Source: Bacteroidales bacterium
Lineage (GTDB): Bacteria; Bacteroidota; Bacteroidia; Bacteroidales; UBA932
Reading direction: 5' to 3'
NCBI GenBank assembly: GCA_017398335.1
Contig: JAFQGK010000016.1
Span: 1 to 41,750, forward strand
DNA: 41,750 nucleotides
The translations under genes and the position numbers were made by a program. Below the pieces are notes generated by a model that was not told the DNA's origin, searched no databases, and was given only the letters and a program-made list of their open reading frames with translations. This document shows, in pieces, positions 16,033-30,697 of this stretch. Positions within the stretch are counted from its first letter, which is position 1; every line of letters starts with the position of its first letter.

Positions 16033-16060
16033 TAGATTGCCGGTCAAGCCGGCAATGACA
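16033..16060 (-). repeat. Single palindromic repeat element upstream of the CpXC gene
   Basis: Arms ATTGCCGG and CCGGCAAT around TCAAG, flanked by TAG and GACA. On the minus strand it reads TGTCATT...AATCTA, the same design as the complete palindromes before thyA and dihydrofolate reductase. It ends 12 bp before the ATG of the downstream gene. Confidence 0.8.
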
Positions 16061-23530: not shown

Positions 23531-23740
23531 CCATCCCGGAATTGATAACCTTATCATCCCAGATTTGACTATAATGTCATTCCTGACCAGATAATCTTAT
23601 CGTTCCCGACCTGATTAAATTGACATTCCCAACTTGATTAAATAGTCATTTTTGACCAGATTAAATAGTCATTCCCTACCAGATAAAATAGTCATTCCCG
23701 ACCTGATTAAATTGTCATTCCCGACCTGATCGGGAATCTA
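23531..23740 (+). repeat. Degenerate 23-bp tandem repeat array ending in a complete palindrome, upstream of thyA
   Basis: Eight consecutive units of exactly 23 bp start at 23531, 23554, 23577, 23600, 23623, 23646, 23669 and 23692. The best conserved begins TCATTCCCGACCTGATTAAA. A ninth copy (23715-23740) changes after CCTGA into the right arm TCGGGAAT followed by CTA, forming a palindrome with arms ATTCCCGA/TCGGGAAT around CCTGA. Units diverge most at the galM side and least beside the palindrome. The array fills almost the whole galM-thyA gap and ends 13 bp before the thyA ATG. Confidence 0.92.
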
Positions 23741-24552: not shown

Positions 24553-24680
24553 TCATCCCTGACCAGACGAACATCCCTGACCAGACGAACATCCCCGACC
24601 AGACAAACCGTCATCTCTGACCTGATAATCCGTCATCCTTGACCTGACAAATCGTCATCCCCGACCTGATCGGGGATCTA
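24553..24680 (+). repeat. Second degenerate tandem repeat array ending in a palindrome, upstream of dihydrofolate reductase
   Basis: Units beginning CATCCCTGACCAGACGAA at 24554 and 24572 (18 bp each), then three 22-bp units at 24590, 24612 and 24634 (forms such as CATCTCTGACCTGATAATC). The final copy at 24656-24680 is complete: arms ATCCCCGA and TCGGGGAT around CCTGA, then CTA. Same family and orientation as the array before thyA, but with different unit lengths. It fills the thyA-folA gap and ends 11 bp before the ATG. Confidence 0.9.
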
Positions 24681-27904: not shown

Positions 27905-30697
27905 ATGGATTTAACAAGTGAATGCAAAATGAAATATATGAATAAGACTCTTTTGAAGAATATCGGAATATATGCAGGAATCATCCTGTTCTTTGCCGTG
28001 CTGGCCTACGGCTTTGTGCCCCAGGTGCTTGACGGAAAGATTGTGAATCAGAGTGATATATCCGCGTGGAAGGGGATGGCAAATGAGGCGATAAGCCATA
28101 ACAAGGCAAATCCTGACGACCCTACGGCATGGACGAATTCTATGTTCGGAGGAATGCCTACCACGGCTTTCATCGATGATTTTGACGGAGACTGGACCAA
28201 GCAGATCTATAGCTTCCTGATGTCTGGCAAAAGGCCGGCAAGCTACCTTCTGGTGACCTTGGTCGGTGCTTTTCTGCTGATGCTGTCCCTTGGAACCAGC
28301 AAGCTTATCGCAGTCGCTGGAGCCATTGCAATGGCGTTCTGTTCATATAATATGCAGATAATCCAGGTCGGTCACAACACCAAGATGCAGGCTATCGCAT
28401 TCTTCCCGTGGGTTTTGGCAGGTGTGATATTCACTTACAGGGCGGCAATGGGATCCCTCGGCTCCGCTCGGGATGACAAAATGAGCGCTCGGGATGACAA
28501 AAAGGGCACTCAGGATGATAAGGATGTCATTTCGACCGAAGTGGAGAAATCCCCATTGAAAAAATGGTTGCCTAAGACTGTTCTGGGTGCGACCTTGTTT
28601 GCCCTGGCCTTGAGTATGCAGATCAAGGCAAACCATGTCCAGATCACATATTACCTTGCCATAGTCATATTTACCTATGCCATCGGCCTGTTCATAAGCC
28701 TTTGCGTCGATAAGGCGCGCCGTGCCGGAATCGGGAGATTCATGGCTGCTTCGGCCTTGCTGCTTGTAATAGGCTGCGTAGGTATAGCCACGAATGCCAA
28801 TAAGCTTATTCCTACATACGAATATACTCCTTACACCATGCGTGGCGGTTCCGAACTGTCAGCCGACAGCGAGAGTCATAATGCCAAAGGACTTGACCTT
28901 GACTATGCTACGGCATGGTCGTATGGAATAGAGGAAATGCCTAATCTTCTGATTCCGAACTTCAACGGAGGTTCGTCATCTGGTCCACTCGACATGGATT
29001 CAGAGACCGGAAAGCTTCTGAAAAGAGCTGGTCAGCCGAACCTGCGCCAGACCCTCAAGCACATGCCTCTCTACTGGGGTCCGCAGCCATTCACTGCCGG
29101 TCCAATGTATATGGGAGCCATTTCCATCTTCCTTTTCGTCCTTGGACTGATTCTGTGCAGGGGACGTGAGAAATGGTGGATTCTTGCAGCTACGGTCATC
29201 GCAGTTCTGCTTTCGTGGGGAAATCATTTCATGTGGTTCACAAAGCTGTGGTTTGATTATGCTCCGCTTTACAATAAGTTCCGAACGGTATCGATGGCGC
29301 TGATCGTGCTGCAGGTGACTGTTCCGATGCTCGGCTTCTATGTTCTGGACAGAGTGATGAAGGAGAAATATTCGCGTAAGGATTTTCTCAAGGCTGGCGG
29401 TATCGCATGGGCGGTGACGGCAGGATTCTGTCTTATTTCGGCCATAATGCCAGGAGTTGCAGGAACGTTTACGGGAAGCGTGGACGCCGGTCAGCCGGAT
29501 GTACTTGTTGACGCCCTTGTCGCTGACAGGCAGGATATCATGATAAAGGATGCATGGAGGTCATGCGCGTTCATAACCATAATCTTCGCCCTTCTTTTCT
29601 GGGCTTTCCAGACACCTAAGATCGACGCAGTAGGACCTCAGGGCTCCTTTGTGCGCAAGGGGAGAATGATGATTACAGGCGCTGCCGTTGTTCTTCTTGT
29701 CTTCCTGGACCTTGTACCGGTAGGCAAAAGATATCTCAACAAGGAACATTTCGTGACCCCAAAGGACTTCTCGGCCGCTTATGACCCACGTCCTGTGGAC
29801 GAAATCCTTTTCGAAGACGATGACCCTGATTTCCGCGTCCTCGACATCAGCGTCAACACATTCAACGATGCCATCACCAGCTATCATCACAAGACCATCG
29901 GAGGTTACAGCCCTGTCAAGATGCAGAGATATCAGGACCTCATAGATAGATATATCACTAAGGAAATCAGACAGTTATACGATGTTGTCGGCAATGCGGC
30001 GACCGTGCAGGAGGTGGAGGACAATATGCCGTATATGAAGGTTGTATCCGCTCTGAACGGTAAATATGTGATTCTTGGAGGCGAGTATCCGCCTGTTTCC
30101 AATCCGTACGCTATGGGTAACTGCTGGTTCGTGGATTCGGTCAGGATTGCTGCTACTCCTGATGATGAGATCGGTCTGCTTGCCGACACTGATCTCCGCA
30201 CTACGGCTGTCATCGGCGAGGACTTCGCCTGGGCATATGAATCAGGTGTCTTTGAAGCACAAAGGCCGGAGGAGTCTGAAAATTATCCGGAGAGAGGTCC
30301 CGGCTTCCGTCAGGACGCCATATTCCTTAACAGTTATGCTCCGAACGAACTTCGTTATACTTTCAGCACGGCTCGCGAAAGGGCTGCAGTCTTCAGCGAA
30401 ATCTATTATCCGAAAGGCTGGAAGGCGTGGATAGAGCCGGTGGGAACATATGGTGAGGTAAAGAACGGACATTATGTACCGACACCGGATGCCCGGCCGC
30501 TTGAGCTCTTCCGTGCGGACTGGATGCTCAGAGGAGCTATCGTTCCGGAGGGCGAAGGCGAACTCATCATGCGTTTCGAGCCGGATTCATATCAGGTCGG
30601 CGAGAACATCTCCCGCGCCAGCTCGATATTCCTTATTCTCCTGCTGCTTCTGTCTGTAGCAGGTGCATGTTTCGGTCGCTGTTCCCGACCAGCTTAA
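27905..30697 (+). CDS. YfhO-family multi-spanning membrane protein with in-frame repeat insertion
   Basis: A 930-residue polytopic membrane protein of the YfhO family, which resembles GT-C membrane glycosyltransferases. Transmembrane segments fill the first ~550 residues and a last one ends the protein; a large soluble region lies between (PRPVDEILFEDDDPDFRVLD onward). ATGs at 27929 and 27938 are alternative starts, the latter giving MNKTLLKNIGIYAG. Residues ~184-216, in a loop between two transmembrane segments, are encoded by palindromic-repeat DNA and contain three heptads (SARDDKM, SARDDKK, GTQDDKD) followed by VISTEVEKS. The final codons (TCC CGA CCA GCT TAA) resemble a half-unit of the same repeat family. 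Partner of the glycosyltransferase upstream, by context. Confidence 0.85.
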   Translation: MDLTSECKMKYMNKTLLKNIGIYAGIILFFAVLAYGFVPQVLDGKIVNQSDISAWKGMANEAISHNKANPDDPTAWTNSMFGGMPTTAFIDDFDGDWTKQIYSFLMSGKRPASYLLVTLVGAFLLMLSLGTSKLIAVAGAIAMAFCSYNMQIIQVGHNTKMQAIAFFPWVLAGVIFTYRAAMGSLGSARDDKMSARDDKKGTQDDKDVISTEVEKSPLKKWLPKTVLGATLFALALSMQIKANHVQITYYLAIVIFTYAIGLFISLCVDKARRAGIGRFMAASALLLVIGCVGIATNANKLIPTYEYTPYTMRGGSELSADSESHNAKGLDLDYATAWSYGIEEMPNLLIPNFNGGSSSGPLDMDSETGKLLKRAGQPNLRQTLKHMPLYWGPQPFTAGPMYMGAISIFLFVLGLILCRGREKWWILAATVIAVLLSWGNHFMWFTKLWFDYAPLYNKFRTVSMALIVLQVTVPMLGFYVLDRVMKEKYSRKDFLKAGGIAWAVTAGFCLISAIMPGVAGTFTGSVDAGQPDVLVDALVADRQDIMIKDAWRSCAFITIIFALLFWAFQTPKIDAVGPQGSFVRKGRMMITGAAVVLLVFLDLVPVGKRYLNKEHFVTPKDFSAAYDPRPVDEILFEDDDPDFRVLDISVNTFNDAITSYHHKTIGGYSPVKMQRYQDLIDRYITKEIRQLYDVVGNAATVQEVEDNMPYMKVVSALNGKYVILGGEYPPVSNPYAMGNCWFVDSVRIAATPDDEIGLLADTDLRTTAVIGEDFAWAYESGVFEAQRPEESENYPERGPGFRQDAIFLNSYAPNELRYTFSTARERAAVFSEIYYPKGWKAWIEPVGTYGEVKNGHYVPTPDARPLELFRADWMLRGAIVPEGEGELIMRFEPDSYQVGENISRASSIFLILLLLLSVAGACFGRCSRPA
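28451..28552 (+). repeat. Palindromic-repeat cluster inserted in frame within the YfhO-family gene
   Basis: Starts with an imperfect palindrome (ATCCC ... GGGAT, then GACA), continues with GCTCGGGATGACA at 28466, the same at 28487 and a degenerate ACTCAGGATGATA at 28508 (period exactly 21 bp), and ends with a second palindrome beginning TGTCATTTCGACC (28525) and ending GGAGAAATCC. Total length keeps the reading frame, with no stop codon. Confidence 0.85.

What the first reader, a model, noticed from the sequence alone, without database searches (positions are those of the whole stretch)
28451..28552. Palindromic repeats inserted in frame inside a YfhO-family gene, giving a heptapeptide repeat
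Residues ~184-216 of a membrane protein are encoded by two palindromes flanking half-unit copies spaced exactly 21 bp, producing SARDDKM / SARDDKK / GTQDDKD. The same DNA style (GGGATGACA and TGTCATTTCGACC) is intergenic elsewhere. The insertion lies in a loop between transmembrane segments and keeps the frame open. This resembles the in-gene palindromic elements described in Rickettsia, but with tandem growth whose period is a multiple of three, in contrast to 18, 22 and 23 bp in the intergenic arrays.
Basis: partly seen in the sequence, partly recalled or inferred. Interest (0 to 1): 0.74.

Follow-up and report, generated by a model that had tools for sequence, protein, structure and literature searches.

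The report
Repeat DNA refilling the same loops
A short selfish-looking DNA repeat sits in frame inside a membrane-protein gene of an uncultured gut bacterium, and in related species the same loop, and loops of two tRNA-modification enzymes, hold different versions of such repeats, as if these loops were parking places that are refilled again and again.

Summary
Confirmed. Window 28450-28553 holds an inward-facing pair of REP-type palindromes bracketing 21-bp half-unit copies, in frame at residues 184-216 of a 930-aa YfhO-like protein. The repeats resemble CGTC/TGTC-tagged REPs: 101 intact REPs in 1.02 Mb of this genome, none in the reversed control. In-gene REPs are known from Rickettsia (RPE) and others, so the kind is known.

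New here is the turnover. In 44 orthologous genes scanned whole, all 29 coding-part REP matches scoring 18 or more lie in this loop or in one second loop. Both loops hold different REP types and orientations, or none, in different species (at least 10 and 16 changes on a tree); sister species about 93% identical in DNA carry different types in loop 2. TsaB (9 of 23 relatives) and TilS (10 of 29) behave alike. In-gene tandem periods are multiples of three in 19 of 19 arrays, against 7 of 30 outside.

Best reading: largely neutral REP colonisation of permissive loops, repeatedly replaced from each genome's REP pool, growing by in-frame slippage. Re-insertion versus replacement of an older insert stays open. 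No transposase was linked; no structure was obtained.

The parts
27905..30697 (+). host gene: 930-aa YfhO-like polytopic membrane protein (P0001)
   Evidence: 17 of 48 aligned sequences match PF09586 YfhO at E<=1, P0001 itself does not
28450..28478 (+). forward REP (class A, tag ATGACA), translated G-SLGSARDD
   Evidence: score 23 of at most 28 against a class A consensus
28465..28521 (+). tandem half-units, period 21 bp, about 2.6 copies (SARDDKM SARDDKK GTQDDKD)
28525..28553 (-). reverse REP (class A), tag facing the first one (tail-to-tail pair), translated DVISTEVEKS
30221..30331 (+). second hot-spot loop of the same protein; no REP here, but REP hits with score>=18 in 16 of the 44 genes scanned
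23575..23738 (.). intergenic REP plus half-unit array (period 23/46), for comparison
24554..24678 (.). intergenic REP plus half-unit arrays (periods 18 and 22), for comparison
16035..16060 (+). intergenic class I REP

Best explanation
The segment is a REP element (two CGTC/TGTC-like REPs, tags inward, bracketing slippage copies of the tag-side half) that occupies a permissive hydrophilic loop of a membrane protein in frame. Shown: it belongs to this genome's own dispersed REP population; the same loop, a second loop of this protein, and loops of TsaB and TilS carry different REP types, orientations and sometimes reading frames, or none, in related species; the in-gene tandem arrays examined all have periods divisible by three. 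Inferred: REPs arrive all over the genome, only copies that keep the frame and fall in dispensable loops survive, the loop content is overwritten by whichever REP type the genome carries, and short arrays grow by replication slippage or template switching filtered for frame. The peptide is most likely near-neutral ballast.
For: Genome-wide REP family: 101 in 1,017,035 bases, 0 in the reversed control. Whole-gene REP scan of 44 orthologous genes: 31 hits with score>=18, of which 13 in loop 1, 16 in loop 2 and 2 at the extreme 5' end of the stop-to-stop frame (L047, L063; probably before the true start); the reversed control gave 3 hits even at score>=13. At least 10 and 16 state changes on a 46-row tree built without the loops (10 and 11 for presence alone). 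Sisters L045/L046, 92.4 and 94.1% identical in DNA, carry a class A array and a class B REP in loop 2; L044/L047, 88-91%, are filled and empty. TsaB 9 of 23 and TilS 10 of 29 relatives with REP hits (score>=16) confined to two and four sites, reversed control 0 and 0. Class B in genes in 7 genomes, 6 of which hold the exact class B head, against 6 of 24 others (Fisher p=0.007). Periods: 19 of 19 in-gene arrays are multiples of 3, 7 of 30 others (p=3.5e-8).
Against: In the unbiased part of the own-genome sample only 1 of 85 REPs lies in a plausible gene (L140, no Pfam match), after 10 hits in ORFs that I judged not to be genes were set aside (L150 3, L290 1, L314 6); the TsaB, TilS and FAD genes came from stretches chosen because they had hits. 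Below score 18 the YfhO scan is less clean: of 23 hits scoring 13-17, 7 lie elsewhere in the coding part, 1 at the 5' end and 2 just past loop 2. In the first relative set only one TsaB (L200) plainly carries REP peptides. Class A forward REPs share one start in loop 1 (+3, or +4 with a changed first base), and 5 of 14 reverse REPs in loop 2 end exactly 21 nt before YAPN, which one old insert later overwritten would also give. Being open is partly a condition of the period test: three non-3n units would still be open in 24 of 78 frames tried. No mobilising enzyme is linked. In YfhO the reading frame is not random (11 of 11 forward, 14 of 16 reverse in one frame), so some selection on the peptide is possible.
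Confidence: 0.78

Rival explanations
1. One ancient insertion per loop, inherited by the whole clade and later diverged or gene-converted into other REP types (the 'extended RPE-4' model proposed for Rickettsia).
For: Shared junctions: class A forward starts at +3 or +4 in loop 1; 5 of 14 reverse REPs in loop 2 end exactly 21 nt before YAPN. Remnants such as AGATCC in species without a strong REP hit, e.g. L047 and L050.
Against: Class B starts at +6, +9, +9 and +10; reverse ends vary from 21 to 30 nt. Class A (27-28 nt) and class B (34 nt) consensuses differ in length by a number not divisible by three in most pairings, so a plain swap would break the frame. TsaB and TilS sites hold REPs in different frames and orientations. 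Most farther relatives have short linkers.
Confidence: 0.35
2. The peptide is useful: charged, flexible extensions tune the protein or lengthen a linker, and REPs are co-opted as raw material.
For: The loop-1 peptide is hydrophilic (mean hydropathy -1.2) and one hydrophilic frame is preferred in YfhO.
Against: Presence, length and type vary between sister species; TsaB and TilS use other frames; most relatives scanned have no REP hit.
Confidence: 0.1
3. An old low-complexity protein loop whose codons resemble the repeats by chance.
For: The loop is variable in general, and some distant relatives have long loops without a REP hit.
Against: Several loop REPs match consensuses taken from other sites almost exactly (L044 and L056 score 28 of 28, L054 32 and L046 31 of 34), against 3 low-scoring reversed-control hits.
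Confidence: 0.02
4. Assembly artefact of metagenome bins.
For: The window's genome is incomplete and in 73 contigs, and the named relatives are nearly all MAGs.
Against: Seen in MAGs of several separate projects (record titles); the frame is kept, and in-gene class B tracks each genome's resident repeats.
Confidence: 0.03

Closest known systems
Intragenic CGTC/TGTC-tagged REPs (Di Nocera, De Gregorio and Rocco 2013, PMC3733652; abstract, passages, sections 6, 15, 16 and part 1 of 2 of section 17 read)
   Same: Tag ATGAC[A/G] (= [C/T]GTCAT), short palindromes with AT first in the stem, found inside genes in frame; the paper names Bacteroidetes among the phyla with CGTC REPs, and different REPs at about the same site of recB in two Xanthomonas species.
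   Different: Here tail-to-tail pairs outnumber head-to-head ones and clusters are common (both rare in the paper's CGTC families); orthologous loops are refilled across many species; in-gene tandem arrays have 3n periods.
Rickettsia palindromic elements RPE-4/6/7 and 'extended RPE-4' (PMC3767692; abstract, passages and section 12 read; background on RPEs in PMC2229807, passages read)
   Same: In frame in conserved genes; ATGAC motif; different element groups near one site in orthologues.
   Different: There the orthologues aligned by the authors all carry an insert, and hot spots could not be excluded against their preferred single origin; here many orthologues have no REP hit and close sisters differ.
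REPINs / RAYT-mobilised GTAG REPs (PMC3116915, PMC2817692; search listings with abstract starts only, rest recalled)
   Same: Inverted pairs of REPs as the unit.
   Different: No GTAG tag; of the three Y1_Tnp genes found in this genome, two lie in 20-kb stretches without a grammar REP, and the third only lies near the REP-bearing tsaB.

Membership tests
CGTC-tagged REP superfamily (PMC3733652) | terminal CGTC (or TGTC/CCTC) tag | tested here: met
   ATGAC[A/G] ends, (the detectors ask for ATGAC; the full palindromes around it and the empty reversed control are the test)
CGTC-tagged REP superfamily (PMC3733652) | 8-9 bp stem starting with AT, loop of 4-5 nt | tested here: inconclusive
   class I: 8 bp and 5-nt loop; the class A REPs in the window pair 5 bp before mismatches
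CGTC-tagged REP superfamily (PMC3733652) | mostly head-to-head dimers; tail-to-tail dimers and clusters rare | tested here: not met
   neighbours within 600 bp: 18 tail-to-tail, 9 head-to-head, 17 head-to-tail; many arrays
CGTC-tagged REP superfamily (PMC3733652) | not associated with transposase genes | tested here: met
   no grammar REP in the stretches holding two of the three Y1_Tnp genes; the third has REPs only in the nearby tsaB; other transposase families not tested
Rickettsia RPE-4/6/7 | in-frame copies inside conserved protein genes, ATGAC motif | tested here: met
Rickettsia RPE-4/6/7 | insert present in all orthologues of the group | tested here: not met
   no in-loop hit with score>=18 in 25 of 44 YfhO-like genes, no hit with score>=16 in 14 of 23 TsaB and 19 of 29 TilS; old eroded inserts could be missed
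Rickettsia RPE-4/6/7 | solvent-exposed position | not tested
   structure job never finished; hydropathy only
REPIN / RAYT system | GTAG tag and flanking RAYT gene | tested here: not met
REPIN / RAYT system | inverted REP pair as the unit | tested here: met

The most novel reading that the evidence does not exclude
Across a genus-level group of gut Bacteroidales, a small set of loops in housekeeping proteins (YfhO-like, TsaB, TilS, perhaps DHFR and others) act as standing docking sites that are serially overwritten in frame by whichever REP type the genome carries, with 3n tandem growth: a mobile-repeat population that uses protein loops as a long-term habitat.
Probability: 0.45. Interest if true: 0.75.

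Novelty: new variant of a known kind. Interest (0 to 1): 0.62.

Why it matters
For Rickettsia it was not settled whether different palindromic elements at one in-gene site mean hot spots or one old insert that diverged (PMC3767692). This group offers dozens of species, orthologues without a REP, sister pairs with different occupants and three separate proteins, so the question can be tested directly. It also maps loops that tolerate large foreign peptides (about 150 extra residues in TsaB) in enzymes generally regarded as essential (recalled), and shows selection for reading frame acting on what look like slippage products.

Tried and rejected
Chance or low-complexity loop: rejected (reversed controls). 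Single event confined to this species: rejected. RAYT-linked REPs: Y1_Tnp genes exist, but REPs do not flank them. In-ORF REP hits in L150, L290, L314, L146 and L135 were judged spurious or upstream of a real start and dropped, as was the array before the thyA-like start in L060. The 5 arrays in unassigned ORFs (3 with 3n periods) were set aside in the period test, which used loci of 31 genomes plus the own stretches, not every locus held. Counting four class A remnants below score 18 as filled gives 12 instead of 10 changes for loop 1, or 9 for presence alone. In one search I labelled the loop-2 REPs of L048 and L112 as class B by eye although their best library hit was class A; with library labels the count is still 16. 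For YfhO alone the class B match to genome content is weaker (Fisher p=0.06). Class B head counts partly include in-gene copies; taking these off by coordinates (by eye) leaves 6 of 7 genomes positive. The B test looked at three proteins only, and TsaB was found in 23 of 30 genomes.

Full report
What is there. The window is a 41,750-base contig of a 2.21-Mb, 73-contig genome given as 86% complete. ORF 27905-30697 encodes a 930-aa membrane protein. Its loop DNA 28450-28553 is two REP-like palindromes facing each other with their ATGACA tags, with 21-bp head-to-tail copies of the tag-side half between them. The segment folds as RNA better than most shuffles (-44.1 kcal/mol, z -2.5; 4 of 200 shuffles as good). 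The protein itself matches no Pfam or NCBIfam family at E<=0.001 and no solved structure at E<=1, but 17 of 48 aligned sequences match YfhO PF09586 at E<=1. The nearest named relatives come from ruminant and other animal guts (record titles).

The repeat family. A hairpin-plus-tag grammar finds 101 REPs (78 class I such as GATTCCCGGTCAAGCCGGGAATGACG, 23 class A such as GATCCCTCGACTTTGCTCGGGATGACA) in 1,017,035 bases of this genome and none in the reversed sequence. Of these bases, 915,285 are 69 stretches not chosen for hits (85 REPs); the rest are the window and three stretches picked because they had hits (16 REPs). A looser detector on the first 590,823 bases gave 73 hits against 7 in the reversed and 19 in codon-shuffled controls. 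Neighbours within 600 bp are tail-to-tail 18, head-to-head 9, head-to-tail 17. The in-gene element has the same build as several intergenic ones. The class A head is present in 30 of 31 genomes checked, with 0 or 1 control hits each; a third class, B (AGATTGCCACGTCGCTTCGCTCCTCGCAATGACG), is present in 12 of 31 with no control hits.

Same loop, many fillings. Orthologues were taken from two searches and aligned. In most farther relatives the loop is short (2-20 residues), in some it is long but shows no obvious REP (for example L022 55, L077 44 residues); in many of the ~70%-identical ones it is REP DNA: class A forward (L043, L044, L063, L071), class B forward (L048, L054, L057, L112), or class A reverse (L045, L046). 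A scan of 44 whole genes with consensuses taken from other loci gave 31 hits with score>=18: 13 in loop 1, 16 in a second loop near residues 783-803, and two at the extreme 5' end of the frame (L047, L063), none elsewhere. 19 of 44 genes carry at least one in a loop. Of 23 weaker hits (13-17), 13 lie in the loops, 2 just past loop 2, 1 at the 5' end and 7 elsewhere, so the weak range is not clean; the reversed control gave 3 hits in all. On a 46-row tree built without the loops, loop 1 needs at least 10 changes and loop 2 at least 16; for presence alone 10 and 11. Thirteen of the 43 inner branches of that quick tree are weak (under 80), so the exact counts are soft. Sisters L045 and L046 (92.4 and 94.1% DNA identity in two blocks) have a class A array versus a class B REP in loop 2; L044 and L047 (88-91%) are filled and empty. 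Junctions are partly shared (class A at +3 or +4 in loop 1; 5 of 14 reverse REPs in loop 2 end exactly 21 nt before YAPN) and partly different (class B +6 to +10; other ends 22-30 nt). In YfhO one frame dominates: 11 of 11 forward and 14 of 16 reverse hits with a readable tag (27 of 29 hits).

Not only this gene. In the same genome TsaB (PF00814) has a large REP array plus a second REP, TilS (PF01171) has REPs at three places (four hits), and an FAD protein (PF21688) has one array. In the 30 genomes of close relatives, TsaB was found in 23 and has REP hits (score>=16) in 9 of 23, only in the same two loops; TilS was found in 29 and has hits in 10, at four sites; types, orientations and frames differ (VIPSEAEGS, CHPERSEGS, VIARSEATWQS, EIPGQAGND); reversed controls 0 and 0. 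In a broader relative set only one TsaB (L200, the same genome as one of the 30) plainly has REP peptides. In TsaB the insert seems also to replace about ten native residues (by eye). DHFR (L060) and an MFS transporter (L262) of relatives are decorated too. Against generality: in the unbiased part of the own sample only one of 85 REPs is in a plausible gene (L140, no Pfam match), after 10 hits in ORFs judged not to be genes were set aside.

Frame-filtered growth. REP-unit arrays inside genes of these six families have periods 18, 21, 24, 27 or 36: 19 of 19 multiples of three; outside genes 7 of 30; 5 in unassigned ORFs set aside (3 of 5) (Fisher p=3.5e-8). Six of the 19 lie in the reference proteins themselves, whose gene status rests on Pfam or, for the window protein, on its orthologues. 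The arrays come from related genomes, and genes must be open to be counted, so the p-value overstates; three non-3n units would still be open in 24 of 78 frames.

Where the filling comes from. Seven genomes have a class B REP in one of the three proteins; six of them hold the exact class B head, also after taking off in-gene copies by eye, against six of the other 24 (Fisher p=0.007; for YfhO alone p=0.06). So loops tend to carry the resident type.

Mechanism. Shown: membership in the dispersed repeat family, shared sites, changing content, 3n periods. Inferred: arrival by insertion or by replacement of an older REP, survival only in dispensable loops, slippage growth. The enzyme is unknown: three Y1_Tnp genes exist in this genome, but these REPs do not flank them, apart from tsaB near one.

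Known or new. In-frame palindromic elements are known in Rickettsia and others (PMC2229807, passages; PMC3733652, abstract, passages, sections 6, 15, 16 and part of 17). The closest precedent is Rickettsia RPE-4/6/7, where orthologues carry different groups near one site; the authors favour one diverged origin but write that hot spots are not excluded (PMC3767692, section 12). Searches of the held open library showed, among the rows listed, no report of in-gene REPs in Bacteroidales; their lists were capped and subscription papers are mostly not held. I therefore call it a new variant of a known kind.

Noticed in passing
L007 1070-1190 (own genome C40): Another palindrome type (GTCACGACGCGC...GCGTCGTGAC) lies beside a Y1_Tnp (RAYT-like) gene; GTCGTGAC also occurs in the mixed arrays of L003/L004.
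   Followed up: no
L007 1193-2374 (-): TsaB with about 150 extra residues built from degenerate REP half-units, 393 aa against open frames of about 230-300 in most relatives.
   Followed up: yes
L168 8650-10374 (-): TilS with REP inserts at three places, one shortly before the PP-loop motif SGGIDS.
   Followed up: yes
L060 6984-7592 (-): Dihydrofolate reductase of a relative with an in-frame REP (SVIPDQPVIPDSIGNP) before GGGQIY.
   Followed up: partly
L290 4290-4325 (own genome C42): A REP overlaps what looks like the stop codon of one gene and ends just before the start of the next.
   Followed up: no
window 30221-30331: Second hot-spot loop of the same protein; free of REP in this genome although filled in many relatives.
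   Followed up: yes
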